A stretch of DNA of 32,568 bases from Plantactinospora alkalitolerans (GTDB lineage Bacteria; Actinomycetota; Actinomycetes; Mycobacteriales; Micromonosporaceae), in NCBI RefSeq assembly GCF_015690345.1, contig NZ_JADPUN010000272.1, positions 1 to 32,568 on the forward strand. The letters are read 5' to 3'. Positions 29 through 31,158 of this stretch are shown here, in pieces. Both the position numbers and the translations under genes were made by a program. How positions within the stretch are numbered: position 1 is the first letter of the stretch; every line of letters starts with the position of its first letter. Below the pieces are notes generated by a model. It did no database searches, had not been told where the DNA came from, and was given only the letters and a program-made list of their open reading frames with translations.

Positions 29-553
29 GGCGTGCTGGCCGCCGCGCCGCGCCGCCGCCTGGAAACCACCGGCCGTCCCCTGCTGGTACGCGCCTACTAC
101 GCGATCAACGGACGGCATCCGGCCTACCGCGACGCCCTGTTCGGTCGGGGCGCGATCGCGCTCGCCGAGGCGGGCCGACGGCGGTTCGGGCCGTTTCCCG
201 ACGTCATCGCCGACGATCTCTTCCTCGACTCGCTCTTCGGGAACGCCGAGAAACGGGAGGTGACCGAGGTGTCGACGCTGGTCGCCACGCCCCGGCGGAC
301 GGCCGACCTGCTGCGCCGGCTCGGCCGGGTCCGGGCCGGCAATGCCGCCCTGCGCGCCACCGACGAGCAGGTCCGCCGGGCCCGCCGGGCGTCCTGGCTG
401 GTCGACGTCGTGCTGCCCCGGCCGTGGCTGATCCCGGCCGGGATCTGTTACGCCGGGCTGACCGTGCTGGCCGCGACGGCGGCTCGGCGACCAGCCACCC
501 AGAACCGATGGGGGCGGGACGAGTCCAGCCGAACGACGGGAGCGGCGCCGTGA
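29..553 (+). CDS. Family 2 glycosyltransferase, C-terminal part (5' truncated)
   Basis: The reading frame is open from the adapter junction to a TGA at 551-553, so this is the last ~174 residues of a longer protein whose start is off the contig. The remaining part reads like the C-terminal half of a membrane-associated GT2 enzyme: an acceptor-side segment (RPLLVRAYYAINGRHPAYRDALFGRGA), an acidic ADDLFLDSLF motif in the place of the usual ED catalytic pair, a basic helix rich in R, and a final hydrophobic segment (about WLIPAGICYAGLTVLAATAA). The stop overlaps the start of the next glycosyltransferase by four bases (GTGA), so the two are translationally coupled and probably act in the same cell-surface glycan pathway. 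Donor and acceptor cannot be told from this fragment. An upstream GTG at 32 is not a genuine start. Confidence 0.7.
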   Translation, partial: GVLAAAPRRRLETTGRPLLVRAYYAINGRHPAYRDALFGRGAIALAEAGRRRFGPFPDVIADDLFLDSLFGNAEKREVTEVSTLVATPRRTADLLRRLGRVRAGNAALRATDEQVRRARRASWLVDVVLPRPWLIPAGICYAGLTVLAATAARRPATQNRWGRDESSRTTGAAP

Positions 554-1545
554 ATCCGCTGGTGAGCGTGGTCGTCGTCTCCTACGAGACCCGCGAGTTG
601 ATCCTCACCGCCCTGGCCACCCTGCGAGCGGCCTGCCCGGCCGAGCCGTACGAGGTCATCGTGGTCGACAACGCGTCGACGGACGACTCGGCGGCCGCGG
701 TGGCGGCGCAGTTTCCGGATGCCCGGGTCGTACGGCTGGCCGACAACGTCGGCTTCGGCCGGGCCGTCAACGTCGGCGCGGCCCGGGCCCGGGGCGACTG
801 GCTGTTGTTGCTGAATCCGGACACCGAGCCGGTCGGCAACGTCATCGGGGAGTTGCTGGAGTTCACCCGTGCCCATCCGGGGCACGGCATCTACGCCGGC
901 CGTACCCTCGGGGTCGACGGCACCGACGACGGCCACTCGGTGTTCGGGCCACCCTCGTTGTGGACGCTCACCTGTTTCGCCACTGGCCTGTCCAAGCTGT
1001 TTCCGCGGTCCCGGCGGTTCAACCGGGAGGCGCTGCCCTGGCTGGACCGGGCGACCCCGGTCCGGGTGCCGGCCGCGTCCGGCTGCCTGCTGCTGGTCCG
1101 GCGCTCGCTCTTCGCCCAACTCGACGGCTTCACCCCGGACTACTTCATGTACAACGAGGACCTCGACCTCTGCCTGCGGGCCACGGCGATCGGCGCCAGT
1201 CCCATGCTGGTGCCGACGGCCCGGGTGGTGCACGTGGGCGGCGCCGCGTCGACCAGCGCCGGCAAGCGGGTCATGCTGCTGCGTGGCCAGGTCACTTTCC
1301 TCCGGCTGCGCTGGTCCCCCGCCCGGGCTGCGGCAGGCCGGACACTGCTGCTGGTCGGGATCGCGGTCCGGGCGGTGGGCGCCCGGCTGACCGGTCGGGC
1401 CGGCTACTGGCGCGAGGTGTGGCGGCAGCGGCGTACCTGGCTGGCCGGTTGGCCACCGGCCGGCGGCCTGGCCCCGATCGAGGTCGTCGACCCGGTTCCG
1501 CCCAACCCGAGGGGGACCCCGCAACCCTCGGCCGACAGCCACTGA
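550..1545 (+). CDS. Family 2 glycosyltransferase, rhamnosyltransferase-like
   Basis: This 331-residue protein would transfer a sugar from a nucleotide donor in cell-wall or exopolysaccharide assembly, as the WbbL-type GT2 enzymes do. The GT-A fold is clear: N-terminal strand VSVVVVSYE, then VDNASTDDS near residue 40, GFGRAVNVGA, the metal-binding region LLLNPDTEP, and the acceptor motif YFMYNEDLDLCLR. A hydrophobic stretch (GRTLLLVGIAVRAVGARL) near the C terminus may attach it to the membrane. The frame is open upstream to 424, but the GTG at 550 starts directly before the conserved first strand and gives the usual GTGA overlap with the preceding gene. The C-terminal 30 residues are Pro-rich and not conserved-looking. 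The exact sugar is unknown. It ends 29 bp from the convergent hydrolase gene. Confidence 0.85.
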   Translation: MNPLVSVVVVSYETRELILTALATLRAACPAEPYEVIVVDNASTDDSAAAVAAQFPDARVVRLADNVGFGRAVNVGAARARGDWLLLLNPDTEPVGNVIGELLEFTRAHPGHGIYAGRTLGVDGTDDGHSVFGPPSLWTLTCFATGLSKLFPRSRRFNREALPWLDRATPVRVPAASGCLLLVRRSLFAQLDGFTPDYFMYNEDLDLCLRATAIGASPMLVPTARVVHVGGAASTSAGKRVMLLRGQVTFLRLRWSPARAAAGRTLLLVGIAVRAVGARLTGRAGYWREVWRQRRTWLAGWPPAGGLAPIEVVDPVPPNPRGTPQPSADSH

Positions 1546-1574: not shown

Positions 1575-2396
1575 TCAGCCCGGATCGGCCGGGCCACCTC
1601 CCGGCGTGGCGCCCGGCGTCGGCTGATCGGCGAACGCCGCCACGGTCCGGTCGGCGTACGCGCTGGCGTCGCCGGTCTCCATCGGACCGTCCCAGACCGT
1701 GGGCAGCGGTAAGGACACCGCCGGGTTGACCCGCCGGACCACCTCATCCAGCACGGTCTCGGCGTCGCCGACCCAGAGGTGCTTCGCACCCGGTACGCCG
1801 ACCACCTCGGCCTGGGGCACGGCCGCGAACCGGCGGCGGGCCTCGTCCGGTCGAAGGTAGTCGTCGAACTCGGGTACCAGTGCGGTCAGTGGCCTGCCGG
1901 ACTCGGCCCACCGGGCCAGGTCGTCCTCGGTGGTGGTCCGCAGCGGCGGGGAGAGCAGGATCGCGCCGACGATTCCGGGGTCACAGCCGTGTCGCAGGGT
2001 CAGGTCGGTGCCGAAGGACCAGCCGAGCAGCCAGATGTCCGGCAGTTCGGCGAACTCGGCGTACTCGATCGCCGCCGCGACGTCGAACCGTTCGGCCTCT
2101 CCGGCGTCGAAGGTCCCCTCGCTGGTGCCGCGCACGCTGGTGGTGCCCCTGGTGTTGAACCGCAGCACCGCCAGATCGGCCAGGGCGGGCAACCGCCAGG
2201 CCGCCTTGCGGAACACGTGACTGTCCATCATCCCGCCGTGGGTGGGCAGCGGGTGCAGGCAGACCAGGGTGGCGACCGGATCCCGGTCGGCGGGTGTCGC
2301 CAGCTCGCCGACCAGCCGGAGGCCGTCGGCGGTGTGCAGTTCGATGTCCTCCCGGCGGCCGGGCAGGATGCTGGAGGCACGGATCGCTGGGCTCAC
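1575..2396 (-). CDS. Alpha/beta hydrolase
   Basis: A 273-residue cytosolic alpha/beta hydrolase with no signal peptide. It shows an oxyanion-hole region (VCLHPLPTHGG), a nucleophile elbow GWSFG, and a late histidine in VGVPGAKHLWVGD. These resemble the dienelactone-hydrolase-like proteins in which the substrate is usually unknown. The frame extends to 2696 without a stop, but that extension is Arg/Pro-rich low-complexity sequence that overlaps the next gene. The GTG at 2396 (VSPAIRASSILPGRREDIEL...) precedes the first conserved strand. Only a weak ribosome-binding site is visible. It is convergent with the glycosyltransferase and probably separate from the gene at 2474-2800, which runs in the same direction 77 bp upstream. 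Confidence 0.75.
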   Translation of the reverse strand: MSPAIRASSILPGRREDIELHTADGLRLVGELATPADRDPVATLVCLHPLPTHGGMMDSHVFRKAAWRLPALADLAVLRFNTRGTTSVRGTSEGTFDAGEAERFDVAAAIEYAEFAELPDIWLLGWSFGTDLTLRHGCDPGIVGAILLSPPLRTTTEDDLARWAESGRPLTALVPEFDDYLRPDEARRRFAAVPQAEVVGVPGAKHLWVGDAETVLDEVVRRVNPAVSLPLPTVWDGPMETGDASAYADRTVAAFADQPTPGATPGGGPADPG

Positions 2397-2473
2397 GGGA
2401 ATCAGTCTTACCCGCGACGGCCGGTCGGAACAGCCGACCTGGAACACCGTGACGAAGATCCCTGAAGAATTGG

Positions 2474-2800
2474 TCAGCCGTACCGGGGGGCGCTGCGGGA
2501 GCGCTCCACGCCGGGTGACCGTCGGTCCCGGGCCCGCCAGCAGCCGGTGTGCCAGTGCCGGCGGTCGGTCAGGTCGCCCCGGCCGTCGGCGGGCCAGGCG
2601 ACCAGGTGGGCCACCCCGGGGCGGATCTCCTGGGCGCAGCCGGGGCAGCGGTACGTCTTGACGGCGCCGGAGCCGGAAATGCTCCGTACCTGCCACTCGC
2701 CGTCCCGCCAGCTCTGCACGGACTCGACGCCGCGCCGCATCCGCTCGTCCTCCAGCGGGGCGGCGCCCTCGGGGCGAGGACGGTTACGACGCGGACTCAC
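2474..2800 (-). CDS. Small conserved actinobacterial Cys/His protein
   Basis: A 108-residue basic protein. It begins MSPRRNRPRPEG from a GTG at 2800, and the earlier start at 2857 would add a low-complexity leader. The middle contains YRCPGCAQEIRPGVAHLV followed by RRHWHTGCWRARDR, so a CxxC pair and a later H-x-H/Cys cluster could bind one zinc ion. I recognise it as a small protein conserved in actinobacteria that is often labelled 'ATP/GTP-binding protein' in databases, although no nucleotide-binding motif is visible and that label should not be trusted. Function unknown. It is divergent from the PAS-domain gene, sharing a ~180-bp intergenic region that holds two inverted repeats. Confidence 0.75.
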   Translation of the reverse strand: MSPRRNRPRPEGAAPLEDERMRRGVESVQSWRDGEWQVRSISGSGAVKTYRCPGCAQEIRPGVAHLVAWPADGRGDLTDRRHWHTGCWRARDRRSPGVERSRSAPRYG

Positions 2801-3815: not shown

Positions 3816-4574
3816 TCAGATCACCACCTGCCGTCGGCTGTCGTGCCACAGGTTGGTGTTCTCCCAACTGAGGCCGAGCTGGCGCGGCCGGGCGATGACC
3901 CCGTACCGGTGGTTGCGCCCGAAGGTGTTGTTCCGGAACACGATGTTCGAGCCGACCGCGTCGGCGCGTACGGAGACGGTGTAGTCGCCGCCGTCGCAGT
4001 AGTTGTCCTCGAACAGCAGGTCGGACACCAACCGCCCGCCCGTGGACGTGATCGTGAGGCAGGCGCTCATCGGGTCCCCACTCGCCCGGTACGCGTCCAG
4101 GCGGTTGTGCCGGACGAGGATCCCGCTGCCGCCGGCGGTCTGCAGGAGATCGTTGTGCCCGCCGCCGGACCGGACCAGGTCGTGGATCCAGCAGTCCAGG
4201 ATGCTGGTCCGGTTGCCCAGCCGGGGCCCGTCCACCACGTCGTGGATGTCGACCCGGCGCAGCGTGTAGTCGCCGGGCGAGACGGCCGGACCGGCAATTC
4301 CCCTGCCGTCGATCTCCACGTCCTCGACGAGCAGGCCACGGGCCTGACCGAAGGTGCGGATCGGGCACGAGGCGTCCGGAGCGACGATTCTCGACTTCCG
4401 GATCACGACGTTCTTGGCGTAGACGTTGACCCGTCCACTGATATGCAGGTTGGTGAGGACCTGGCCGTCGGTCTTCAGTTCCAGTGAACCCGTGGAACCG
4501 AGTACGGCTCCGACCGGAACACCTGTTGTCATCGGCCCGGGCCAGTCGGTGAGCGGGATCTGTGGTGTCGACAT
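3816..4574 (-). CDS. Right-handed parallel beta-helix repeat protein
   Basis: A 252-residue protein with short regular strand repeats typical of parallel beta-helices: LTNLHISGRVNVYAKNVVIRKSRIV, GLLVEDVEIDG, YTLRRVDIHDVVDG, SILDCWIHDL, GILVRHNRLDAY, DLLFEDNYCDGG, NIVFRNNTFG. Such folds occur in polysaccharide lyases and in carbohydrate-binding surface proteins. I see no lyase active-site signature and no signal peptide from the start chosen. The ATG at 4574 is preceded by a GGGGGG-type ribosome-binding site, which favours it over the start at 4601. It is divergent from the six-gene FG-GAP array and shares its AT-rich upstream region, so co-regulation is possible. Confidence 0.8.
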   Translation of the reverse strand: MSTPQIPLTDWPGPMTTGVPVGAVLGSTGSLELKTDGQVLTNLHISGRVNVYAKNVVIRKSRIVAPDASCPIRTFGQARGLLVEDVEIDGRGIAGPAVSPGDYTLRRVDIHDVVDGPRLGNRTSILDCWIHDLVRSGGGHNDLLQTAGGSGILVRHNRLDAYRASGDPMSACLTITSTGGRLVSDLLFEDNYCDGGDYTVSVRADAVGSNIVFRNNTFGRNHRYGVIARPRQLGLSWENTNLWHDSRRQVVI

Positions 4575-4879
4575 TTTCCCCCCTGGAGCAATCGGCGCCA
4601 CACTGCACCGAATACGACCAGGCTACAAGTAGGAACAGATCTGTACATGTACGAATTAGACAGATCGAGGACAATGTAATCTAGCTTATTCAGAAATATA
4701 CGGCGAACGATTCAGAGCCCGGACGAAGTGATCAAATAGCCCTTGAGCTGCGATAAGTCCCAGCCGTCGGGGCTGTCGGATCACGGTCAACATGCTATTT
4801 ATCTCCACAAACACGGTTACCGTCCGCAAACAGGCATCAGTCGGAGCGGACTGACCGATCCGGCTCGTAGGAGGGCGTC
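4575..4879. promoter_or_regulatory. AT-rich divergent control region with overlapping palindromes
   Basis: This ~305-bp stretch between the beta-helix gene and the FG-GAP array contains no gene. It is strikingly AT-rich for the window, especially 4620-4720. It holds two overlapping 10-bp palindromes, acagatctgt (4635-4644) and gtacatgtac (4643-4652), and a further cagatc at 4661. The 16-bp element shared with 7185-7200 lies at 4774-4789. A GGAGGG ribosome-binding site precedes the ATG at 4880. Confidence 0.6.
4774..4789 (+). promoter_or_regulatory. 16-bp element shared by two FG-GAP genes, copy 1
   Basis: tgtcggatcacggtca is identical to 7185-7200 and lies 106 bp before the ATG of the first paralog; the match continues with one mismatch for three more bases. 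Because the two surrounding intergenic regions are otherwise different, the conserved block is a candidate binding site for a shared regulator. Confidence 0.5.
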
Positions 4880-5977
4880 ATGTGGAAGAGGCGTATCGCG
4901 GCAGCGGCCGGATTGGCGATCCTGGCCACGATGGCGGCGAACCCCACCCCGGGCCAGGCGGCTGGTCCGGGCGACTCCATCACCGGTGACTTCAACGTCG
5001 ACGGGCTTCCCGACATCGTGGTGCTCGGTTCCGTCGAGCCCGACCTCTGTTCGGTCGTCGTCCGGTACGGCAGCAGCCCCGGCGTCTACCTGCCGCCGAT
5101 GGCCACCGTCTATGCCCGGCCCGGCGACAGCAGGGGCACCTCGTGCCCGGACATCGGGGTCGGTTTCGACGCCGACACCGATCCCGGAGACGAACTCTGG
5201 ATCGGCTGGAGCGCGGGACCCCCACCGTCGCTGTCCTACAACCGGTTGGTGATCGACGACAACCTACGGACGATCCTGACGTTCAGCTCGCCGATCACCC
5301 CGACCTTCCTCGGCACCGCGGACTTCAGCGGCACGGGACGCCACACGGCCTTCTCGGTGGGTCACGGCGGCTTCGCCACCTACATCATCGAGAACGGCGT
5401 GGGCCGGCTCGGCCCGGAGCAGTGGTGCTCGACGGATCCCCCGGGTTACCAGCTACGGGATTTCGACCGGAACCGGGCGACCGACGCCGTGCTGTCGTAC
5501 ACGCGGGGCTGCGACAACGGCGGCAACGGGGTCGTGGCGGTGCTCGACGACGGCACCATCCACCACCTGGAGACCGATCTGACCGGACGGTACACCTGGA
5601 CGGCCAGGGTGCTGGACACCAGCGGCGACCGGTTCCCGGACGTACGCACCGTGAACCAGGTGACCGGCGAGACCAACTACTTCATCGGTCGCGGCGACGG
5701 CGGTTTCGTCAAGGGGCCCGACGCGAACACCGACACCGTCTACCTGACCACGGTCAAGCCGCTGGCGATCGACGTACTGGCCAACGACTACGTCGCCGCC
5801 GAGACCGAGGTGATGATCACTGTGCCACCCCGGTACGGGACGGCGCGGGTGCTCTCCGACCGCCGGATCCTCTACACCCCCCGCGAGCACCACGGGCGGA
5901 CCGACAGCCTCAGCTACCAACTGCGTCGACAGGGCAAGAGGAGTACCGCCGCGGTCAACATCAAGTTTCCCGACTGA
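4880..5977 (+). CDS. Secreted FG-GAP/VCBS-like protein, paralog 1 of 6
   Basis: This 365-residue protein opens the array. Residues 1-27 are a Sec signal peptide (MWKRR, hydrophobic core, cleavage near GQA/AGPGD). The body has five spaced Asp-rich loops of the FG-GAP/VCBS type, which in known families bind calcium within beta-propeller blades: DFNVDGLPD, FDADTDPGDE, DFSGTGRHT, DFDRNRATD and DTSGDRFPD. The third and fourth are partly degenerate. Cysteines lie at 57, 89, 183 and 211, the same four places as in all paralogs. Residues ~292-364 form a cadherin/Ig-like domain (VLANDY...VPPRYGTARV...ILYTPREHHGRTDSLSYQL). There is no sortase signal or C-terminal membrane anchor, so it is probably released or held by its folded domains. 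GGAGGG precedes the ATG. Function unknown. Confidence 0.9.
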   Translation: MWKRRIAAAAGLAILATMAANPTPGQAAGPGDSITGDFNVDGLPDIVVLGSVEPDLCSVVVRYGSSPGVYLPPMATVYARPGDSRGTSCPDIGVGFDADTDPGDELWIGWSAGPPPSLSYNRLVIDDNLRTILTFSSPITPTFLGTADFSGTGRHTAFSVGHGGFATYIIENGVGRLGPEQWCSTDPPGYQLRDFDRNRATDAVLSYTRGCDNGGNGVVAVLDDGTIHHLETDLTGRYTWTARVLDTSGDRFPDVRTVNQVTGETNYFIGRGDGGFVKGPDANTDTVYLTTVKPLAIDVLANDYVAAETEVMITVPPRYGTARVLSDRRILYTPREHHGRTDSLSYQLRRQGKRSTAAVNIKFPD

Positions 5978-6023
5978 TCCTCGAAAGACGCCCTGATACC
6001 CCCAGCACCCACAAGGGGACACA

Positions 6024-7139
6024 ATGCGGAACAGACGCGCAGCCCTGGCCGTAACGATGCTCACCGTGCTCGCGATCGGCGCGGTGTCCCCCACCGCCGA
6101 AGCCGGCGTGCCCGGAGAAACGCTGTACGGCGACTTCAACTCCGACGGCGTCGTCGACGCGGCCGTACTCGGCTCGATCTCACCGAACCTCTGCTCGACG
6201 GTCGTCGAGTACGGCAGCGCGCCCGGCGTCTACCTGCCACCGATCGCGTACACCTATCTCCAGCCCAACGGCGGCGGCACCCCCAACTGCCCCGACATCG
6301 GCGTCGCGCTCAACGTGGACGGCGATCCGGCCGACGAACTGTGGCTCGGCTGGAGCCTCGGCGCGCCCGCCACCGTCTCGTTCAACCGACTGGTGCTCCA
6401 GCCACCGACGTTCGCGCCCTCGGCGTTCCACACGTCGATGATCGCCCGACCGAGCCTCATGGGAAAGGGCATGTTCGCCGCCGGAGGACGGTTCAGTCCG
6501 TACGACGTGGGTCCGGGCGGCGTGCAGAACTTCGTCATCCACGGCGCCGACGTGGCACCCGGTCCGGTCGCGCACTGCACCGTCGACACCCCGTCGATGA
6601 TCCCGAGCGACTTCAACCGGGACGGCATCGACGGGCTCCTCCTCACCTACCAGCACGACTGTGCCGACAACAGCAGCGGGGTGCTCCGGATCCGTCACGA
6701 GGGCAGCGTCGCCCAGATCCTCCAGAACGACCCGACCGGCCGTACGACCTGGGTTTCCCGGGTGGTCAACGCCAACGACGACCGCTGGTTCGACGTCCGG
6801 ACCGTCAACCAGGCCACCAGCGAGGTCGACTACTTCATCAACGAGACCGTCGGTACGGACACCCTCCTGGTGAGGGCGCCGGACGCGAACAGTGACCGGG
6901 TCGCGCTCGCCAGCGTCAAGCCACTCGCCATCGACGTACTCGACAACGACTTCGCGAGCCGGTACGTCGAGGTGAGCATCGCGACCCCACCCCGGTACGG
7001 CACCGTCCAGGTACAGGGCGACGACCGCATCGTCTACCGGCCGAACCCCCGGCACGGTCGTACCGACCGCTTCACCTACCAGTTGACCGAAGAGGGCAAG
7101 AAGAGCCTCGCCACCGTGAGTCTCACCTTCCCGACCTGA
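6024..7139 (+). CDS. Secreted FG-GAP-like protein, paralog 2 of 6 (degenerate repeats)
   Basis: 371 residues, 46 bp after paralog 1 and probably co-transcribed with it. The signal peptide ends near AEA/GVPGE. The first loop (DFNSDGVVD) and fourth loop (DFNRDGIDG) are recognisable. The third loop, found as TADFNGDGR in others, has become KGMFAAGGRFSPYDV, so calcium binding there is lost. The fifth is NANDDRWFD. Cys57, Cys89, Cys185 and Cys213 are all kept although the loops decay, which suggests that the disulfide scaffold matters more than this calcium site. The C-terminal Ig-like domain (VLDNDF...TPPRYGTVQV...IVYRPNPRHGRTDRFTYQL) is intact. It is closest to paralogs 1 and 3 through the shared VKPLAIDVL-type entry to the last domain. 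Confidence 0.9.
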   Translation: MRNRRAALAVTMLTVLAIGAVSPTAEAGVPGETLYGDFNSDGVVDAAVLGSISPNLCSTVVEYGSAPGVYLPPIAYTYLQPNGGGTPNCPDIGVALNVDGDPADELWLGWSLGAPATVSFNRLVLQPPTFAPSAFHTSMIARPSLMGKGMFAAGGRFSPYDVGPGGVQNFVIHGADVAPGPVAHCTVDTPSMIPSDFNRDGIDGLLLTYQHDCADNSSGVLRIRHEGSVAQILQNDPTGRTTWVSRVVNANDDRWFDVRTVNQATSEVDYFINETVGTDTLLVRAPDANSDRVALASVKPLAIDVLDNDFASRYVEVSIATPPRYGTVQVQGDDRIVYRPNPRHGRTDRFTYQLTEEGKKSLATVSLTFPT

Positions 7140-7184
7140 GTCCGGAACCATGCCTTGACCTGCGGTTACATCGTGCCAGCCCGG

Positions 7185-7200
7185 TGTCGGATCACGGTCA
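7185..7200 (+). promoter_or_regulatory. 16-bp element shared by two FG-GAP genes, copy 2
   Basis: Identical to 4774-4789 (tgtcggatcacggtca). It lies 129 bp before the ATG of paralog 3 and about 29 bp before the putative -10 hexamer at 7229, in the region where an activator or an upstream promoter contact could sit. Confidence 0.5.
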
Positions 7201-7228
7201 GCACCGGATAATAACGGCAGAAGCGGTC

Positions 7229-7234
7229 TAGCGT
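7229..7234 (+). promoter_or_regulatory. Putative -10 element TAGCGT for paralog 3
   Basis: TAGCGT in the context gtctagcgtcccc matches the context before the PAS gene at 2909. It would start a transcript with a leader of ~73 nt before the ATG at 7314 and implies that paralogs 3-5 have their own promoter, consistent with the 174-bp gap after paralog 2. Confidence 0.4.
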
Positions 7235-7313
7235 CCCCAATACCCGACCAGACCGTCACACTCCGGTTTCCGGTCAAGCCAGCCAGCACACGTCGACGTA
7301 CCAGGGAGGCGCC

Positions 7314-8441
7314 ATGTGGCGCAGGCGTACCGCCATGGTGGTGGTGATCGTGATCATGGCCGCGATCGGCGGCGCCGCAGGCCCGGGGCCGACCCTCGCC
7401 TGGGCCGCCGGCCGGGGCGAACAGATTCGCGGCGACGTGAACGGCGACGGCTTCTCGGATCTGATCACGCTCGGACTGGTCCAGCCCGACTTCTGCTCGG
7501 TCATCGTGGAGTACGGCACCGCCTCCGGCGAGTACGGCCCGCCCGCGGCATCGGTCTACCTCCGGCCCGGCGGGTCCGGGCTGGGCACCCGCTGCCCGGA
7601 ACTCGGCGTGACGGTGGACCTGGACACCGACCGCACCGAGGAACTGGTGGTGGCCTGGTACCCCGGCCCACCGCCGACCGTCCCGTACAACCTGATGGTG
7701 CTGAACACGGCGTTCCAGCCGTCGTTCGGGCTGGTCTCGGCGATCTTCGCGCCCAACTACCTGGGCACCGCCGACTTCAACGGCGACGGACGCGAGGACG
7801 TCTACGCGGTGACCGACCAGGGTCAGGGCATCGAGACGTACCTGGCTCCCGGGAACGGCACCCTGGTCCCGGGCCCGGAGAAGTGGTGTGCCCGCCCGCT
7901 CCAGTACGAGCTGCGGGACTTCGACCTGGACGGCCGGACCGACCTGGTCAACAGCTACATCGAACGCTGCCTGTCGATCACGCCGGTCAGCGGGGTCGCG
8001 GTGGTGCTGGACGACGGGACCACGCAGGAACTCCAACGTGACCCGATCGGTGTGGAGACCTGGACCACCCGGGTGGTCGACACCAACGGCGACCGGATCC
8101 CGGACATCCGCACCGTGTCCCAGTTGACCGGCGTAACCGAGTACTTCATCGGCGTCGGCGGCGGCCAGTTCGTCCGGTCACCGAAGGCCAACGCCGACAC
8201 GGTCCAGCTCACCGGAACCAAGGCGGTGACGCTGAACGTACGCGCGAACGACCAGGCCACCACGCAGGCCACGGTCACCGTGACCGTCCCGCCACGCTAC
8301 GGCACCGCCCGGGTCATCAGCGGCGGCCGGATCATCTACACGCCTCGGGCGAGCCACGGCCTGACCGATCGGTTCACGTACCAGCTCGCCGAGGGCGGCC
8401 GCCGGAGCAGCGCAACCGTAAACATCCGCTGGACCGGATAG
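7314..8441 (+). CDS. Secreted FG-GAP/VCBS-like protein, paralog 3 of 6
   Basis: 375 residues. The signal peptide is longer than in its relatives (MWRRR, then a strongly hydrophobic core, cleavage near AWA/AGRGE). The Asp-rich loops are well kept: DVNGDGFSD, VDLDTDRTEE, DFNGDGRED, DFDLDGRTD and DTNGDRIPD, so this may be the member closest to the ancestral calcium-binding form. After the third loop it has VTDQGQGIETYLAPGNGTLVPGP, a segment shared with paralogs 4-6 but not 1-2. Cys61, Cys94, Cys192 and Cys219 correspond to the invariant four. The C-terminal Ig-like domain reads VRANDQ...VPPRYGTARV...IIYTPRASHGLTDRFTYQL. GGGAGG precedes the ATG. It heads a likely unit with paralogs 4 and 5. Confidence 0.9.
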   Translation: MWRRRTAMVVVIVIMAAIGGAAGPGPTLAWAAGRGEQIRGDVNGDGFSDLITLGLVQPDFCSVIVEYGTASGEYGPPAASVYLRPGGSGLGTRCPELGVTVDLDTDRTEELVVAWYPGPPPTVPYNLMVLNTAFQPSFGLVSAIFAPNYLGTADFNGDGREDVYAVTDQGQGIETYLAPGNGTLVPGPEKWCARPLQYELRDFDLDGRTDLVNSYIERCLSITPVSGVAVVLDDGTTQELQRDPIGVETWTTRVVDTNGDRIPDIRTVSQLTGVTEYFIGVGGGQFVRSPKANADTVQLTGTKAVTLNVRANDQATTQATVTVTVPPRYGTARVISGGRIIYTPRASHGLTDRFTYQLAEGGRRSSATVNIRWTG

Positions 8442-8442
8442 C

Positions 8443-8460
8443 CCAACCCGACAGGGTTGG
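8443..8460 (+). promoter_or_regulatory. Hairpin between paralogs 3 and 4
   Basis: A 7-bp perfect stem with a four-base loop (ccaaccc-gaca-gggttgg) starts two bases after the stop of paralog 3. It ends seven bases before the GAGGAGG ribosome-binding site (8468-8474) of paralog 4. It has no T-run, so a factor-independent terminator is unlikely; it could protect the upstream message or tune translation of paralog 4. Confidence 0.4.
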
Positions 8461-8480
8461 TGAGCCTGAGGAGGCAAGCC

Positions 8481-9593
8481 ATGAGGGGTAGGCGGATCGC
8501 CGCCGTCGCCATGGCGGTAACCATCGCGGCAGTCGGTTGGGTGGTCACGGGAGCATCCCCAGCCGCCGCGGGCGGGCCCGGTGAAAGCATCGTCGCCGAC
8601 GTGAACGGAGACGCCCGGCCGGACCGGGTGGTGCTCGACATCGTGGTGGCGGCCACCGCCTCCTGCCGGGTGGTGGTCAGCCTGGGGCTGGTCGGCGGCG
8701 GGTTCGGGGCGCCGCAGCCGTACACCTACCTGACGCTGCCGGCCAGCGAACCAAACTGCCCGGACATGGGCGTGGGCCTGAACCTCGATGCGGACGTCGC
8801 GGCCGAACTCGCGGTGACCTGGTTCGCCGGCCCACCGACGACGATCTCCAACACCCTGCTGGTGCTGGACAACTTCCGGACCACCCGCGGGTTCAACACC
8901 GTCTACCAGCCGAGCTACATCGGAACCGCCGACTTCGACGGCGACCGCAGGCAGGACATCTACGAGTGGACCGACCAGGGCGAGGGTTTCGTCAGCTATC
9001 TCGCCACCGCCAGCGGGACGCTGGTGCCCGGTCCGGTACGACACTGCTCCGGTCCGCTCACCCACCGGCTCGCCGACTTCGACCAGAACGGCGCGATGGA
9101 CGTGGTGATCGCGTACATCGAGGGATGTGGCGACTACTTCAGTGGTGTGGTCGTGGTCCGCGACAACGGCGCCATGGTCCACCTGCACGCCGACGTGGCG
9201 GGGCTGGCGAGCTGGACGGTCGAGGTCGGCGACGCCAACCACGACGGCCGCACCGACATCACCACCTACAACCAGATGAACGGCGCCATCGCCACCTTCA
9301 TCAGCCTCGGCAACGGCAACTTCATCCGATCGCCGACGGCGATCCGGGACTACCCGACGGTCAGTGGCGTCAAGGCGACCGGTATCCAGGTCCTCGCCAA
9401 CGACTACGCCACCGACCGGGCCAGGGTGACCATCTGGACGCCGCCGCAGCACGGCACGGTGAAGGTCACCACCAACGGGACCGTCATCTACACGCCGAAC
9501 CCCGTCCACGGCACGACCGACAGCTTCGTCTACCGGCTCACCGAGGACGGCAGAACCAGCAACGCCGCGGTCAGTCTGAAGATCATCGGCTGA
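8481..9593 (+). CDS. Secreted FG-GAP/VCBS-like protein, paralog 4 of 6
   Basis: 370 residues from the ATG at 8481, which has GAGGAGG six bases upstream; the earlier GTG at 8457 lies inside the hairpin and is rejected. The signal peptide ends near PAAA/GGPGE. Loops are DVNGDARPD, LNLDADVAAE, DFDGDRRQD, DFDQNGAMD and DANHDGRTD. The block IYEWTDQGEGFVSYL after the third loop and the entry to the last domain (AIRDYPTVSGVKATGIQVLANDYAT) are nearly the same in paralog 6, so 4 and 6 form a sub-pair. All four conserved cysteines are present (TASC, PNCPD, RHCSG, EGCGD). The Ig-like end is TPPQHGTVKV...VIYTPNPVHGTTDSFVYRLTEDG, very close to the bacterial cadherin-like consensus. Confidence 0.9.
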   Translation: MRGRRIAAVAMAVTIAAVGWVVTGASPAAAGGPGESIVADVNGDARPDRVVLDIVVAATASCRVVVSLGLVGGGFGAPQPYTYLTLPASEPNCPDMGVGLNLDADVAAELAVTWFAGPPTTISNTLLVLDNFRTTRGFNTVYQPSYIGTADFDGDRRQDIYEWTDQGEGFVSYLATASGTLVPGPVRHCSGPLTHRLADFDQNGAMDVVIAYIEGCGDYFSGVVVVRDNGAMVHLHADVAGLASWTVEVGDANHDGRTDITTYNQMNGAIATFISLGNGNFIRSPTAIRDYPTVSGVKATGIQVLANDYATDRARVTIWTPPQHGTVKVTTNGTVIYTPNPVHGTTDSFVYRLTEDGRTSNAAVSLKIIG

Positions 9594-9645
9594 GCGGGCG
9601 GGGCGTTTCCCGTCCATCCGGCCCGCGCCCATCCGGAGGAGCGCC

Positions 9646-10758
9646 ATGTGGAGAAGATCGATCGCGGCGACCGCCGCCACGGCAGCGGTCATCGCCCTGG
9701 GGGCGGTTGCGCCGGCCGCCAGGGCCGCCGGACCGGGCGAGGCGTTCTACGGCGATCTCGACGGCGACGGGTTGCTCGATCGCGCCCGGCTCGGCGCCGC
9801 GGTCCGCTACTGCCTCGTCCTCGTGGAGATCGGCCAGGCACAGGGGGGTTACCTGTCCCCGGAGGAGCACCGCTACCGGGTGCCCGGCAGGGCCTCTTCG
9901 GCCGTGTGTCCGGGCCTGGGCGTTGCCGTCGACCTGGACCCCGTCGCCACCGGGGATCCGGGTACGGCCGAACTGGTGGTCGGCTGGTTCAGCGGTAACC
10001 CTGGCCAGCCTCGGCAGGATCTGCTGGTACTCAGGAACTTCACCGTGTCGACCACACTGGACGCGCTCCGCCGGCCCAACATGGTCGGGCTCGCCGACTT
10101 CGACGGCGACCGGCGGCTGGACGTCTACGCCTGGACCGACCAGGGTGAGGGGTTCGCCACGTACCTGAATCCCGGCATCGGAACGCTGCTGCCGGGCCCG
10201 GTCCGCTTCTGTGCCCGGCAGCAGCAGTACCGGCTCGCCGACTTCGACCAGAACGGAGCGACGGACCTGGTCCTCGCCTACGTCGGCCGGTGTGACGACG
10301 GGACGCACGGGGTCGCGGTGGTGCTCGACGACGGCACCGTGACCGAACTCCGCAGCGCCCCCGACGGCGGGCCGGGCTGGACGATCAACGTCCTCTACGC
10401 GAACCGCGACCGGGTGCCGGACATCGTCGTGTATCACCAGCAGGGCGGCGGACTGCGCACCTTCCTCGGCGTCGGGAACGGGACCTTTGTCGAATCGCCA
10501 CTGGCCGTCCGGGACACCGCCACGGTCGCCCTTGCCGGCTCCGTCCGCATCCCGGTGCTCGTCAACGACTCGGCCAGCCGGCGTGCGGCGGTCAGCATCG
10601 TCGTTCCGCCGGTCTACGGGACGGTCGAGGTCACCGATGGCCGGACCGTCGAGTACCGGCCCGGCCCGGTGCCCGACCTGACCGACCAGTTCGTGTACCG
10701 GGTCACCCAGGACGGCCACACCAGTGACGCCACGGTGGTAGTAAAGATCACTTCCTGA
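9646..10758 (+). CDS. Secreted FG-GAP/VCBS-like protein, paralog 5 of 6
   Basis: 370 residues, 52 bp after paralog 4, with GGAGGAG before the ATG. The signal peptide ends near ARA/AGPGE. Loops are DLDGDGLLD, a longer second loop (VDLDPVATGDPGTAE, with an insertion compared with the others), DFDGDRRLD, DFDQNGATD and ANRDRVPD. Four cysteines are conserved (VRYC, AVCPG, RFCAR, GRCDD). The Ig-like domain is the most divergent of the six (VLVNDS...VPPVYGTVEV...VEYRPGPVPDLTDQFVYRVTQDG). It is intermediate between the 1-3 and 4/6 subgroups. The 148-bp gap to paralog 6 suggests that the transcription unit ends or restarts after it. Confidence 0.9.
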   Translation: MWRRSIAATAATAAVIALGAVAPAARAAGPGEAFYGDLDGDGLLDRARLGAAVRYCLVLVEIGQAQGGYLSPEEHRYRVPGRASSAVCPGLGVAVDLDPVATGDPGTAELVVGWFSGNPGQPRQDLLVLRNFTVSTTLDALRRPNMVGLADFDGDRRLDVYAWTDQGEGFATYLNPGIGTLLPGPVRFCARQQQYRLADFDQNGATDLVLAYVGRCDDGTHGVAVVLDDGTVTELRSAPDGGPGWTINVLYANRDRVPDIVVYHQQGGGLRTFLGVGNGTFVESPLAVRDTATVALAGSVRIPVLVNDSASRRAAVSIVVPPVYGTVEVTDGRTVEYRPGPVPDLTDQFVYRVTQDGHTSDATVVVKITS

Positions 10759-10906
10759 GCCGCAGCGCCGGACCCGTACCCCCGATTGACCTGCTCAAAC
10801 ACCTTGTCAGATGACCGTCAGCGCACGTCACGGCACCCTGCGTGCAACTAATCTCCACCAGAGAGCCAGCCCGGACGAAATCGGGCGGCACAGCCGAGGA
10901 GGCACC

Positions 10907-12001
10907 ATGTGGAGTCGGCGCATCGCGATGGTCACCGCAGCGGTGACCATCGCCACCGTCGGCGCGGCGGCGCCCGCCGCCCGGGCCGGCTGGCAGGACG
11001 AGCCGATCATCGCCGACGTGAACGGGGACGGGCTCGCGGACCGGAACATCCTCGGCCTGGTGCCCGGCACGTCCGACTGCACGGTGCTGGTCGAGCTGGG
11101 CCGCCCCGGGGGCGGCTACGCCACGGCGCGGTCGTACCCGTACCTGTCGTCGGCGGTCTACTGCCCGGACATGGGAGTGGGCCTCAACTTCGACAGCGAC
11201 GCCCCGGCGGAACTGGCGCTCACCTGGTTCTCCGGTCCGCCGCCCTCGGTCAGCAGCACCCTGCTGGTGTTGGACGACTTCGCCGTCTCGGGCGGTTTCG
11301 ACACCATCTTCCAGCCCAGCTACATCGGCACCGCCGACTTCAACGGCGACGGACGCCAGGACATCTACGAGTGGACCGACCAGGGCAACGGCTTCACCAC
11401 CTACCTCAACACCGGCACCGGCACGCTCACCCCCGGCCCGCTCCGGTACTGCTCCGGCCGACCGCAGTACGAACTCGCCGACTTCGACCGCGACGGCGCG
11501 ATGGACGTGACGATCGCGTACGCCGAGGGCTGCGGCACCTACTTCACCGGCGTGGTCGTGGTGCTCGACGACGGCACGGTGGTGGATCTGCAGGGTGACC
11601 CCTACGGCGACGAGTCCTGGACCGTGGCCACGGCGGACGTGAACGGCGACGGCATGCTGGACGTGGTCACCACCAACGGGTCGCGCGGCGCACAGAGTGT
11701 CTTCATCGGCACCGGCACGGGCCGCTTCGTCCCGGCCCCGAGGGCGGTCCGGGACAACCCGAGGGTCAGCGGGGCCAAAGCCACCGGCATCCGGGTACTG
11801 GCCAACGACTTCGCCACCAGTGGCACCAAACTCACCATCGTCACCGCGCCCGTGCACGGCACCGTACAGGTCACCACGGGCCGGACCGTCATCTACCGGC
11901 CGCACCGCAACGACACGGCCCGGTCCGACCGGTTCGTCTACCGGCTGACCCAGGACGGCCGAAGCAGCAACGCCACGGTCAGCCTCCGGATCGCCCGCTG
12001 A
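10907..12001 (+). CDS. Secreted FG-GAP/VCBS-like protein, paralog 6 of 6
   Basis: 364 residues from the ATG at 10907 (GAGGAGG upstream); the in-frame GTG/ATG at 10811 would add a leader without signal-peptide character. The signal peptide ends near ARA/GWQDE, the only member without the GPGE-type mature start. Loops are close to consensus: DVNGDGLAD, LNFDSDAPAE, DFNGDGRQD, DFDRDGAMD and DVNGDGMLD. Conserved cysteines occur in SDCTV, VYCPD, RYCSG and EGCGT. The Ig-like end is APVHGTVQV...VIYRPHRNDTARSDRFVYRLTQDG, with a small insertion. The coding end overlaps the convergent dehydrogenase gene by 23 bp. It has a 148-bp upstream region and may be transcribed on its own. Confidence 0.9.
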   Translation: MWSRRIAMVTAAVTIATVGAAAPAARAGWQDEPIIADVNGDGLADRNILGLVPGTSDCTVLVELGRPGGGYATARSYPYLSSAVYCPDMGVGLNFDSDAPAELALTWFSGPPPSVSSTLLVLDDFAVSGGFDTIFQPSYIGTADFNGDGRQDIYEWTDQGNGFTTYLNTGTGTLTPGPLRYCSGRPQYELADFDRDGAMDVTIAYAEGCGTYFTGVVVVLDDGTVVDLQGDPYGDESWTVATADVNGDGMLDVVTTNGSRGAQSVFIGTGTGRFVPAPRAVRDNPRVSGAKATGIRVLANDFATSGTKLTIVTAPVHGTVQVTTGRTVIYRPHRNDTARSDRFVYRLTQDGRSSNATVSLRIAR

Positions 12002-13802
12002 ACGGCTGGGCCGTCGGCTCCCGGAACCCGCGACCGGTTCCGCGCCCCAGGAATCCGGCGGTCACCAGCTTCTCCAGCAGCGGCGCCGGGGCGAGCGAAG
12101 GCTCCCGAAGCTCCCGGTAGAGACTCCGCTGGACCGCCAGGGCGATGTCCAGGCCGACCAGATCCAACATCTCGAACGGGCCCGCCGGATATCCGCAGCC
12201 CAGCTTCATCGCGTGGTCGATGTCGTCCACCGTCGAGTACGACGCCTCCAGCATCCGTACGGCGTCGTTCAGGTACGGAAAGAGCAGTGCGTTGACCACG
12301 AATCCGGCCCGGTCACGGCAGACCACCCCGGTCCCGCCCAGCGCGGCGCAGACCGCCCGCGCGGTGGCGACGGCCTCCGTCGAGGAGCGGATCGTTTCGA
12401 CGATCTCCACCACCGGCCTGACCTCCGCCGACAATCCGGCGGGGCCGGCGGGGCCGGCGAAGTGCAGCCCGAGTACGTCCGCCGGCCGGCGGGTGGCCAT
12501 CGCGATGTCGATGACGGGCAGCGTGCCGGTCGTGGTGGCGAGCAGTGCGCCCGGCCGGCAGACCTCGTCCAACTCGGCGAAGAGGGCCCGAACCGTTTCC
12601 AGGTCTCCGCCGTCCACCGCCGCCACCACCAGGTCGACGTCGGCCAGTCCCTCGAGCCCGGCGGACTTCTCCGAGCCTCCGGTGCCGGCTGACTTCTCCA
12701 GACCTCCGGTGCCGACGGACTTCTCCCGGCCACCGGGGCCGGCGGACTTCTCCGGCTCCCAGGGCAGCACGACGACGTCGTAGCCGGCTCCGGCGAAGAC
12801 CTCGCCGAGCCCGGCGATCGCGGCGTCGGACCCGATCACCCCGACCCGGGCGACCGGACGAGCGCCGTCGACCGGTATCGCCGACGGGGTCTGGTCGTCG
12901 GGTACGACGGTCGACGAGCCCGGCCCGGCGTACCGGTAGAAGCCCTGGCCGGACTTTCGGCCGAGCAGTCCCGCCGTGACCATTTGCCGGAGCAGCGGCA
13001 CCGGGGCGTGCCGACGGTCCCGGCCGCCCCGCCGGTACATGGTCTCCAGGATCTCGTACGCCGTGTCCAGACCGATCAGGTCCAGCAGTGCCAGGGGCCC
13101 CATCGGCAGCCCGCAGCCCAGCTTCATCGCCGCGTCGATGTCCTCGCGGCCGACGTACCGCGACTCGAACATCGCGACCGCCTGGTTGAGGTAGCCGAAC
13201 AGCAGTGCGTTGGCGATGAATCCGGCCCGGTCGGTGATGGTCACGTCGACTTTGCCCAGCCGGCCGCAGAGCGCCTCGACCGCCTCGACCACCTCGGTCG
13301 AGGTCGTCACCGTCCGGATCACCTCGACCAGCTTCATCACCGGGGCGGGATTGAAGAAGTGCATCCCGATCACCTGGCTCGGCCGCTCGGTGGCGACGGC
13401 GATCTCGGTGACGCTCAACGACGAGGTGTTGGTCGCCAGGATGGCGCCCGGCTTGCAGATCCGGTCCAGCTCACCGAAGAGCCGCCGCTTGAGGCCGAGC
13501 TGTTCGGGCACCGCCTCGATCACCAGGTCCACCTCGCCGAGCGCCGCCAGCCCGACGGCGAAGGTGACCCGGCCGAGCAGCGCATCCCGGTCGGCGGCGG
13601 TCAGCCGGCCACGGGTCACGGCCCGGTCGGTGGAACGGGTGAGCGTCGCCCGACCACGTTCCAGGGCGGCCGGGGTGATCTCGACGGCGACCACGTCCAC
13701 CCCACCGCGGGCGAACACCTCGACAATCCCCGCCCCCATCGTGCCCAGCCCGACCACGCCGACCTGCCGTACGCCGTCCCCGTCGGTGAACTCGCCCACC
13801 AC
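11979..13802 (-). CDS. Tandem-fused 3-hydroxyacyl-CoA dehydrogenase
   Basis: 607 residues containing two 3-hydroxyacyl/3-hydroxybutyryl-CoA dehydrogenase units in a row. The family oxidises the 3-hydroxy group with NAD in fatty-acid or hydroxybutyrate metabolism. The first unit is complete: VGVVGLGTMGAGI dinucleotide site, VIEAVPE, ATNTSSLS, the catalytic MHFFNPAPVMKLVEVI, and the helical domain DRAGFIANALLFGYLNQAV...MKLGCGLPMGPLALLDLIGLD. The second has a good helical domain (DRAGFVVNALLFPYLNDAV...MKLGCGYPAGPFEMLDLVGLD), but its nucleotide site is VGVIGSDAAIAGLGE and HFFNP has become HFAGPAGPAGLSAE, so it is probably inactive in catalysis. The GTG at 13802 is six bases after GGAGG. Such fusions occur in other actinobacteria; the repeat insert at 12645-12752 is the unusual part. 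Confidence 0.9.
   Translation of the reverse strand: MVGEFTDGDGVRQVGVVGLGTMGAGIVEVFARGGVDVVAVEITPAALERGRATLTRSTDRAVTRGRLTAADRDALLGRVTFAVGLAALGEVDLVIEAVPEQLGLKRRLFGELDRICKPGAILATNTSSLSVTEIAVATERPSQVIGMHFFNPAPVMKLVEVIRTVTTSTEVVEAVEALCGRLGKVDVTITDRAGFIANALLFGYLNQAVAMFESRYVGREDIDAAMKLGCGLPMGPLALLDLIGLDTAYEILETMYRRGGRDRRHAPVPLLRQMVTAGLLGRKSGQGFYRYAGPGSSTVVPDDQTPSAIPVDGARPVARVGVIGSDAAIAGLGEVFAGAGYDVVVLPWEPEKSAGPGGREKSVGTGGLEKSAGTGGSEKSAGLEGLADVDLVVAAVDGGDLETVRALFAELDEVCRPGALLATTTGTLPVIDIAMATRRPADVLGLHFAGPAGPAGLSAEVRPVVEIVETIRSSTEAVATARAVCAALGGTGVVCRDRAGFVVNALLFPYLNDAVRMLEASYSTVDDIDHAMKLGCGYPAGPFEMLDLVGLDIALAVQRSLYRELREPSLAPAPLLEKLVTAGFLGRGTGRGFREPTAQPFSGRSGG
12645..12752 (-). repeat. Four 27-bp repeats coding 9-residue units inside the dehydrogenase
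   Basis: On the minus strand the coding units read EKSAGPGGR, EKSVGTGGL, EKSAGTGGS and EKSAGLEGL. They replace the helices that follow the second strand of the second Rossmann domain (compare the first unit: EITPAALERGRATLTR...). The repeats stay in frame and would give a flexible, Gly/Lys/Glu-rich loop. Copy number probably varies between strains. Confidence 0.85.
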
Positions 13803-13886
13803 TGCTGACCTCCGACTTCGTCGCGGACGGCCGACCGAACGACCGCTAAGCAAACTGTGGCGAGTCTGCCACCCGGCTCAGGCCCG

Positions 13887-29878: not shown

Positions 29879-31144
29879 TCATATGTTCAACAGGCCGCCG
29901 TTGCGTAGGGCGTCGTCCTTGATCGCGATAAGATTCGCGGAGACGTACGGGATGTTGTGCGTCTGGTGCCATTCGCTCGGAAAGTACGTGACCAACCGGG
30001 ACGCCTGGAATCGGCAATTGATTCCAGGCACAAATCGAGAATAGTTGGCGTCCGTGAAATACCAGAACGAGTTTTCGTTGTAGAACGCCACATGCGTCGG
30101 ATCCTGGTACGCACCCCGACCGTCGGTGCTAGGCGTCAGCGACAACAGCATCCCGTTCGGCGCAAGCAGTCGGTACAACTCGCTGAACAGTGCGACTTTG
30201 TCCGGAATGTGTTCCAGGAAATCCACAGCTCGAATGACTCCGACGCTGCCGTCCGGCAGATCGACGCCCTTCGTTATGTCGCATACCATGTCGACGCCCG
30301 GCCCGTCGCGGTAGTCCAGACCGAGATATCCTTCCGGCTTGTTGTGGGCCGCGCCCAGATCGAGCGCCAGGAGTCCCTGCCGCCGTGACCAGGTCAGCAC
30401 ATTCTGTTGAATGTTCCGATCGTAGATCTCCACCGTACGCTGTTGGATACGGGCGTTGAGATCCGGAATGCGCTGCGTGTTCTTGGCATGCATGCGCTGC
30501 AGGTACAGGCACTTCTGAATGTGATGGAACTCGCTCACCTGGTAGATCCGAGCCATGAGATCGGCGTCGTCCGCGACGTCGAACGACTCGTCGTATCCGC
30601 CGACCTTCTCGTAGATATCCCGGCGGAAGGCCCGCACATGGTTCGGTGCGTACCAGATGTAGCTCACATTGTGCGGCGTGGGCGGCAATGCCCGGCAGAC
30701 AAGCACCTCGCGGCCGTCCACCTTCTCATCGTAGTGACGCCAGCCGAATGAACTCGCGAAACGGTCTTCGCAGCGGCTGCCGTCCTCCTGGATCTGCGCG
30801 GTGTCGCTGTAGACGAACCCCACCTCCGGATTGGAGTCGAAGGCGTCGACGATTTCTTGCAGACAGTCGCTGCTGAGCAGATCGTCGTCGTCAAGCTCGA
30901 CCAGGATGTCCCCGGCAGCCTCGGCACAGGCGTACCCCTTCACGGCGCCAACGCCGTTCAGGTTGTCCTGGACAATGAGCCGGATCCGATCGTCGTGCCT
31001 CTCGGGCCGCCAACGAGACCCCTGGTTGAGAACGACCACCCATTCCCAGTCGGTGAAAGTCTGCGCGACCAGTGATCGGAAACATTCGTCGATGAAACGG
31101 GTGCGGTTGCTCCCTGTGAAGACCGTTACGCGCGGTGTATGCAT
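29879..31144 (-). CDS. Glycosyltransferase family 2 - methyltransferase fusion
   Basis: 421 residues in two enzymes. Residues ~1-225 are a GT2 domain: RVTVFTGSNRTRFIDECFRSLVAQTFTDWEWVVVLNQGS, the DxD-like LVELDDDDLLSSDCLQEIV, and the acceptor region RDIYEKVGGYDESFDVADDADLMARI. Residues ~255-415 are a class I methyltransferase: LLALDLGAAHNKPEGYLGLDYRDG, CDITKGVDLPDGSVGVIRAVDFLEHIPDKVALFSELYRLLAPNGMLLSLTPS. One polypeptide may add and then methylate a sugar. The ATG at 31144 is fixed by a seven-base ribosome-binding site AGGTGAT at 31158-31152; the GTG at 31156 is less likely. Base composition is visibly less GC-rich than neighbouring genes. It is the third gene of the collagen-like operon. Confidence 0.88.
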   Translation of the reverse strand: MHTPRVTVFTGSNRTRFIDECFRSLVAQTFTDWEWVVVLNQGSRWRPERHDDRIRLIVQDNLNGVGAVKGYACAEAAGDILVELDDDDLLSSDCLQEIVDAFDSNPEVGFVYSDTAQIQEDGSRCEDRFASSFGWRHYDEKVDGREVLVCRALPPTPHNVSYIWYAPNHVRAFRRDIYEKVGGYDESFDVADDADLMARIYQVSEFHHIQKCLYLQRMHAKNTQRIPDLNARIQQRTVEIYDRNIQQNVLTWSRRQGLLALDLGAAHNKPEGYLGLDYRDGPGVDMVCDITKGVDLPDGSVGVIRAVDFLEHIPDKVALFSELYRLLAPNGMLLSLTPSTDGRGAYQDPTHVAFYNENSFWYFTDANYSRFVPGINCRFQASRLVTYFPSEWHQTHNIPYVSANLIAIKDDALRNGGLLNI

Positions 31145-31151
31145 TGAGTCA

Positions 31152-31158
31152 ATCACCT
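31152..31158 (-). promoter_or_regulatory. Strong ribosome-binding site overlapping the TPR stop codon
   Basis: AGGTGAT on the minus strand is a perfect seven-base complement to the 16S rRNA 3' end, with seven bases to the ATG at 31144. It contains the TGA stop of the TPR lipoprotein gene, so ribosomes ending there are placed to start the GT-MT gene. Confidence 0.7.

What the first reader, a model, noticed from the sequence alone, without database searches (positions are those of the whole stretch)
4880..12001. Tandem array of six secreted FG-GAP/cadherin-like paralogs
Six adjacent genes of 364-375 residues share one architecture: signal peptide, about five calcium-loop repeats, and a C-terminal cadherin/Ig-like domain. 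They are clearly diverged (1-3 versus 4 and 6, with 5 intermediate), so the array was kept and diversified. Short integrin-like secreted proteins in such a local family suggest an adhesion, ligand-binding or self-recognition system that I do not recognise as described.
Basis: partly seen in the sequence, partly recalled or inferred. Interest (0 to 1): 0.8.

Follow-up and report, generated by a model that had tools for sequence, protein, structure and literature searches.

The report
Six tandem secreted beta-propeller proteins
A filamentous bacterium of the genus Plantactinospora carries six side-by-side genes for small secreted proteins, each predicted as a five-bladed propeller plus an immunoglobulin-like domain; they look like sugar-binding surface proteins, sit near a surface-polysaccharide gene cluster and share a promoter that seems largely reserved for this family.

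Summary
Window 4880-12001 holds six paralogs (36-59% identity): signal peptide, five blades with calcium loops (some lost in genes 1-2), C-terminal Big_9 Ig-like domain. AlphaFold2 gives a confident five-bladed propeller (pLDDT 94.5). The genus is Plantactinospora; the genome has 11 members. Relatives show six ordered orthologous groups; 14 genomes carry 1-6 copies at one locus (near abh2/sm3, beside HCDH), and in nine genomes that site is empty. Selection is purifying; no positive selection was found, so diversifying self-recognition is not supported.

(1) A composite promoter, TGTCRGATNACNGTCA-N28/29-TAnnnT: all 19 exact elements in seven Plantactinospora genomes, and 26 of 30 in all 19 family-positive genomes, precede family genes or a remnant; in the window it marks three transcription units. 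(2) A Wzx/Wzy exopolysaccharide locus lies nearby; its Wzy ortholog occurs in 18 of 19 family-positive and 1 of 281 family-negative genomes, though this is mostly one clade.

The nearest solved structures are lectins: ligand-bound Streptomyces UmbA4 and fungal PVL. Best reading: calcium-dependent lectins for a bacterial surface polysaccharide, working like Vibrio Bap1/RbmC. The ligand is inferred, not shown.

The parts
4774..4789 (+). Promoter element TGTCGGATCACGGTCA of unit 1 (genes 1-2); TAnnnT -10-like box at 4818-4823 (28 nt further)
4880..5977 (+). Gene 1 (group A), 365 aa: signal peptide, 5-blade propeller, Big_9; blade-3 loop degenerate
6024..7139 (+). Gene 2 (group B), 371 aa; most degenerate calcium loops of the six (one pattern match)
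7185..7200 (+). Promoter element of unit 2 (genes 3-4-5); TAnnnT box at 7229-7234
7314..8441 (+). Gene 3 (group C), 375 aa; five intact calcium loops; AlphaFold2 full-length model
8481..9593 (+). Gene 4 (group D), 370 aa
9646..10758 (+). Gene 5 (group E), 370 aa
10805..10820 (+). Promoter element TGTCAGATGACCGTCA of unit 3 (gene 6); TAnnnT box at 10849-10854
10907..12001 (+). Gene 6 (group F), 364 aa; propeller folded alone (window 10985-11737), pLDDT 94.5
32..1545 (+). GT0 (label mine, not scanned) and GT1 (glycosyltransferase family 2), matching the array-side end of the Wzx/Wzy locus of relatives; the contig starts here, so the rest is not in this contig
1575..2740 (-). Conserved left flank, labelled abh2 and sm3 by me (no Pfam hit at E 0.001)
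11979..13853 (-). Conserved right flank HCDH: 3-hydroxyacyl-CoA dehydrogenase

Best explanation
The six genes encode secreted, calcium-dependent, lectin-like proteins. Each is a five-bladed FG-GAP/VCBS propeller (two disulfides likely in most members) that binds a bacterial surface polysaccharide, most likely the producer's own Wzx/Wzy exopolysaccharide or a related cell-wall glycan, with an Ig-like domain beside it for a second partner. They would act as extracellular cross-linkers or matrix adhesins, each paralog with its own fixed specificity, expressed together from a shared promoter type. Shown: the genes, fold prediction, orthology, fixed locus, shared promoter element and purifying selection. 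Inferred: carbohydrate binding (from relatives), the ligand (from the neighbourhood), the role, and the activator.
For: Propeller model pLDDT 94.5, pTM 0.89, 20 strands = 5 blades x 4; full length 87.3 with a C-terminal beta domain. Best solved relative by sequence profile (E 1.3e-9 and 1.7e-10) and by Foldseek (E 4.1e-6, probability 1.00) is 9oee, 'S. griseus TUA bound UmbA4 complexes'; second by Foldseek is the lectin PVL (4up4, E 9.2e-6), solved with a GlcNAc-containing sugar. [quoted passage not shown] In relatives the locus adjoins a polysaccharide cluster with Wzz-like, Wzy and Wzx proteins and glycosyltransferases. A close Wzy ortholog (64% identity or more; next best 50%) is in 18 of 19 family-positive and 1 of 281 family-negative genomes. 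In Vibrio the propeller of Bap1/RbmC binds the matrix exopolysaccharide directly (PMC10102183, abstract and passages).
Against: Nothing measures binding. Co-occurrence with Wzy is nearly one clade on an rpoB tree (support 74) with one joint loss, which could be a single deletion, so it is weak as independent evidence; Wzy-like proteins in the wider sense (E 1e-20) occur in 126 of 300 genomes. Polysaccharide genes in the regions scanned do not carry the family promoter, so no co-regulation was seen. In the Asanoa-type genus the family gene lies away from the polysaccharide locus, and G008 has that locus without the family. Genes 1 and 2 have lost calcium loops. Foldseek TM-scores are modest (0.51, 0.54), probably because blade numbers differ. 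A single-sequence search with gene 6 did not find 9oee at E 1.
Confidence: 0.45

Rival explanations
1. Lectins for foreign glycans: they bind cell-wall or surface polysaccharide of competing actinobacteria, or plant glycans, for antagonism, defence or attachment, as UmbA lectin domains are proposed to select umbrella-toxin targets.
For: Closest solved relative is UmbA4 of an antibacterial Streptomyces particle; several paralogs with fixed differences would suit several ligands.
Against: No trypsin-like domain that would dock into an umbrella particle; stable orthologs and no positive selection rather than an arms-race pattern; persistent place near the cell's own polysaccharide locus.
Confidence: 0.22
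2. Protein-protein adhesins: integrin-like propeller and cadherin-like domain bind protein partners on hyphae or hosts.
For: Integrin alpha chains are among the Foldseek hits; the C-terminal domain also has weak matches to cadherin-like families and to a large-adhesin model, below their cut-offs.
Against: The two best structural matches are lectins; only one Ig-like domain; no cell-wall anchor seen.
Confidence: 0.2
3. Structural coat proteins of the hyphal or spore surface, made at one developmental stage by a dedicated activator, with no specific soluble ligand.
For: The composite promoter without a clear -35 box suggests a dedicated activator; lineage restricted to 19 of 300 sampled Micromonosporaceae genomes.
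Against: The fold class argues for binding; genera lacking the family presumably still sporulate (recalled).
Confidence: 0.1

Closest known systems
UmbA4 lectin region (PDB 9oee, Streptomyces umbrella toxin particles)
   Same: FG-GAP type propeller, actinobacterial, secreted; best profile and Foldseek match, 21% identity
   Different: UmbA4 has a trypsin-like docking domain and several lectin domains in a chain of about 700 residues; here one five-bladed propeller plus one Ig-like domain, in tandem paralogs
Bap1 / RbmC of Vibrio cholerae
   Same: Secreted FG-GAP propeller protein tied to an exopolysaccharide; works-like model
   Different: Eight blades plus beta-prism or mucin-binding domains; two paralogs, not an array of six; homology beyond the superfamily was not tested
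PVL, fungal lectin (4up4)
   Same: Propeller lectin, Foldseek rank 2
   Different: Fungal; larger chain (400 residues; seven blades recalled); no Ig-like domain (recalled)
Integrin alpha head
   Same: FG-GAP calcium-loop propeller followed by Ig-like domains (recalled)
   Different: Seven blades and a heterodimeric membrane receptor (recalled); 12-17% identity in the Foldseek rows
Tachylectin-2
   Same: Five blades, carbohydrate binding (recalled; listed with 'five-bladed'; a VCBS-like lectin family)
   Different: Not among the 50 Foldseek rows shown; no Ig-like domain (recalled)

Membership tests
FG-GAP/VCBS beta-propeller superfamily | DxDxDG-type calcium loops in repeated blades | tested here: met
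   FG-GAP_3 above cut-off in genes 3-6, below in genes 1-2; FG-GAP_3 at E 0.01 or better in 22 of 25 propellers
FG-GAP/VCBS beta-propeller superfamily | Closed ring of four-stranded blades | tested here: inconclusive
   Prediction with 20 strands in five sets of four, pLDDT 94.5, and Foldseek matches to propellers; ring closure not inspected, no coordinates at hand
Big_9 bacterial Ig domain (PF17963) | Profile score over curated cut-off | tested here: met
   6 of 6 proteins
Carbohydrate-binding lectin | Binds a defined glycan | not testable with these tools
   Only relatives and neighbourhood
UmbA proteins | N-terminal trypsin-like domain | tested here: not met
   No trypsin family among Pfam hits to E 1 in six proteins; signal peptide runs straight into the propeller
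Integrin alpha | Seven-bladed propeller (recalled) | tested here: not met
   Five blades predicted
Bap1/RbmC matrix adhesins | Eight-bladed propeller with beta-prism | tested here: not met
   Five blades, Big_9, no beta-prism family hit
Bap1/RbmC matrix adhesins | Propeller binds own exopolysaccharide | not testable with these tools
   Inferred from locus only

The most novel reading that the evidence does not exclude
A lineage-specific extracellular glycan-reading set: five-bladed lectins in a fixed, ordered array, each paralog reading a different epitope of the cell's own Wzx/Wzy polysaccharide, all switched on together by one activator that serves this family through a TGTCRGATNACNGTCA-N28/29-TAnnnT promoter.
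Probability: 0.2. Interest if true: 0.72.

Novelty: new variant of a known kind. Interest (0 to 1): 0.5.

Why it matters
FG-GAP/VCBS propellers are common, but a compact five-bladed secreted form with one Ig-like domain, kept as ordered orthologous paralogs near an exopolysaccharide locus and driven by what looks like a one-family promoter, gives a small tractable system for asking how bacteria pair matrix proteins with their own polysaccharide. If the ligand is an actinobacterial cell-wall polysaccharide, it would also connect to the target choice of umbrella toxins.

Tried and rejected
Positive selection / self-recognition. Counting-based dN/dS gave group medians of 0.37-0.63, which looked high; a codon model with F3x4 frequencies gave omega 0.097-0.178 for the six groups and 0.045-0.129 for eight flanking genes, so I take the first values as a composition artefact. 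Adding a positive class to M1a (a grid with the other parameters fixed, branch lengths fixed up to one scale; M1a fits stopped at their evaluation limit) improved lnL by at most 0.31 in any of six groups. An earlier M2a run on A and E had not converged, and one run timed out.

Co-regulation with the polysaccharide cluster. Not seen: composite sites (up to 3 mismatches) were found only upstream of family genes or remnants in the 16 regions scanned.

Wzy co-occurrence as independent evidence. Weakened: the rpoB tree (30 genomes chosen by me, 19 family-positive and 11 negative) puts the positives in one clade with one negative genus nested. Two earlier rpoB trees were wrong because minus-strand loci had been read on the wrong strand; they are not used.

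Other regulon members. Four one-mismatch sites elsewhere in the own genome gave no convincing composite promoter: one lies in an ORF; one lies about 95 nt before a gene that reads like a membrane protein but lacks the -10 spacing; the other two are outside predicted genes.

Full-length Foldseek searches against the PDB and viral libraries gave mostly Ig-like or loose alignments, many with rmsd over 15; the propeller alone gave the informative result. PHROGs and PADLOC were not searched.

Full report
WHAT IS THERE. The window is one whole contig of a 9.2 Mb genome. Relatives in the same genus place it in Plantactinospora: contig lengths of G002, G006 and G005 equal those of P. mayteni, P. endophytica and Micromonospora sp. 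HM5-17. Six intact paralogs lie at 4880-12001, 36-59% identical. Each has a signal-peptide-like start, about 250 residues of FG-GAP repeats and a C-terminal Big_9 domain. Big_9 passes its cut-off in 6 of 6 proteins; FG-GAP_3 passes in 4 of 6, being below in genes 1 and 2. Five more members lie elsewhere in the genome. A four-cysteine pattern is kept in 56 of the 61 members compiled; the other five lack the second pair or one of its cysteines.

FOLD. AlphaFold2 with 25 sequences from the window and named relatives gives pLDDT 87.3 for full-length gene 3 and 94.5, pTM 0.89, for the propeller of gene 6 alone, with 20 strands, that is five blades of four. Five calcium loops are intact in gene 3; genes 1 and 2 have lost some. 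By profile, the best solved relative is 9oee (E 1.3e-9; 1.7e-10). By Foldseek with the propeller alone, it is again 9oee, titled 'S. griseus TUA bound UmbA4 complexes' (E 4.1e-6, TM 0.51), then the lectin PVL (E 9.2e-6, TM 0.54), then integrin alpha chains and KICSTOR chains. I take TUA to mean teichuronic acid; that is an inference, not in any text I saw. A single-sequence search with gene 6 did not find 9oee at E 1; it found cartilage acidic protein 1 at E 0.001.

EVOLUTION. A tree of 61 members gives six orthologous groups that follow the array order A-B-C-D-E-F, some being absent in some genomes. Copies at the shared locus by genome: G000 6, G001 6, G002 3, G003 5, G004 5, G005 4, G006 6, G007 3 (one short), G016 2, G026 4, G065 1, G066 1, G077 2, G096 2. 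In 13 of these 14 genomes the copies lie directly beside HCDH by my simple gene caller; in G066 one further predicted gene lies between. In 11 they lie directly between abh2/sm3 and HCDH; the window itself has three extra predicted genes between sm3 and gene 1 (a PAS protein, an unlabelled one and a beta-helix protein), and G004 and G066 also have extra predicted genes. In nine genomes without a copy there (G008, G009, G015, G022, G028, and four of the Asanoa-type genus) HCDH directly adjoins sm3 or abh2; in G012 other genes lie between. G003 keeps a promoter and a short start remnant of a B gene (read by eye against G006), and G001 the 3' remnant of another, so copies are also lost. Omega is 0.107, 0.129, 0.097, 0.111, 0.178, 0.110 for A-F, and 0.045-0.129 for eight flanking genes; no positive class was supported. 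The family occurs in 19 of 300 sampled Micromonosporaceae genomes at E 1e-30, in 7 of 44 genera.

PROMOTER. Upstream of genes 1, 3 and 6 lies TGTCRGATNACNGTCA followed, 28 nt on, by TAnnnTC. Of 63 upstream regions of up to 250 nt examined (one locus counted twice), 21 had an exact element, and all 21 had TAnnnT at 28 or 29 nt; 3 of 12,600 shuffled upstream regions had the element within two mismatches. In seven whole Plantactinospora genomes the element occurs exactly 19 times: 18 lie 69-113 nt before an intact family gene and one before the B remnant in G003, with none for the reversed pattern. In the 12 other family-positive genomes there are 11 exact hits: seven precede family genes, again with spacing 28 or 29, and four read TGTCGGATGACGGTCA. 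I looked at one of those four (G024): it lies inside a coding frame. So 26 of 30 exact hits in family-positive genomes are family promoters or a remnant's; G096 and G115 have none. In family-negative genomes the element occurs in 127 of 281; the match list was cut, most listed hits read TGTCGGATGACGGTCA, and I looked at four: one is coding and three are outside predicted genes. One of these, in G315, has TAnnnT 29 nt on (counted by eye) and lies about 200 nt before a different secreted protein, so the promoter may not be private outside the family-positive genomes. No -35 hexamer is evident at the expected place; the element at about -56 to -41 suggests an activator (inference). A further TGASSTG element lies 26-31 nt upstream in 12 of 22 sites.

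NEIGHBOURHOOD. In relatives the other side of abh2 holds a polysaccharide locus: Wzz-like (u17, 26.0 bits against a cut-off of 25.5), Wzy (u18), Wzx (k11), at least four glycosyltransferases (GT1, u16, u19, k10), an epimerase, methyltransferases, and two large GSDH-PKD proteins (Pfam was run on copies from the window, P. mayteni and G016). The window's contig begins inside it. Wzy orthologs of 64% identity or more are in 19 of 300 genomes, 18 of them family-positive; the exceptions are G000, whose contig is cut, and G008, which has Wzy but no family gene. In the Asanoa-type genus both occur but apart. On rpoB the positives form one clade (support 74) with one negative genus nested, so the link is suggestive only. 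The polysaccharide genes in the regions scanned lack the family promoter.

MECHANISM AND COMPARISON. VCBS-like propellers are typically tied to carbohydrate recognition, but also to protein binding (PMC9218822, passages read). UmbA lectin domains tip the spokes of Streptomyces umbrella particles and are proposed to bind target cells (PMC11062931, passages). The propeller of Vibrio Bap1/RbmC binds the matrix polysaccharide in gel shifts (PMC10102183, abstract and passages; domain accounts in PMC3161981 and PMC4551309, passages). The array most likely works like Bap1/RbmC: the propeller holds polysaccharide and the Ig-like domain holds something else. It is not a member of either system: no trypsin-like domain, no eight blades, no beta-prism. 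Literature searches for this family showed no description of it in their listings, in the open-licence library only.

Noticed in passing
window 31770-32567 (-): Open-ended collagen-like protein with GAQ-rich Gly-X-Y repeats, running off the contig end.
   Followed up: no
window 3816-4601 (-); L051 10911-11870; L054 4299-5729: Right-handed beta-helix proteins (Beta_helix scores just below the cut-off in the two scanned; the one in L054 with CBM2) sit next to family genes at three separate loci; chance not excluded.
   Followed up: partly
L107 7419-15427: Two large tandem GSDH-PKD-nidogen-like proteins beside the Wzx/Wzy locus; homologous pairs recur beside that locus in other family-positive genomes.
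   Followed up: partly
L072 1792-2877 (-): Two proteins rich in tandem DTDGDGK-type calcium-loop repeats without an evident signal peptide.
   Followed up: no
L089 935-950 (-): G315, a genome without the family, has an element outside predicted genes with TAnnnT 29 nt on, before a different secreted protein.
   Followed up: partly
window 29879-31156 (-): Reads as a glycosyltransferase fused to a methyltransferase (translation; identification recalled, not searched).
   Followed up: no
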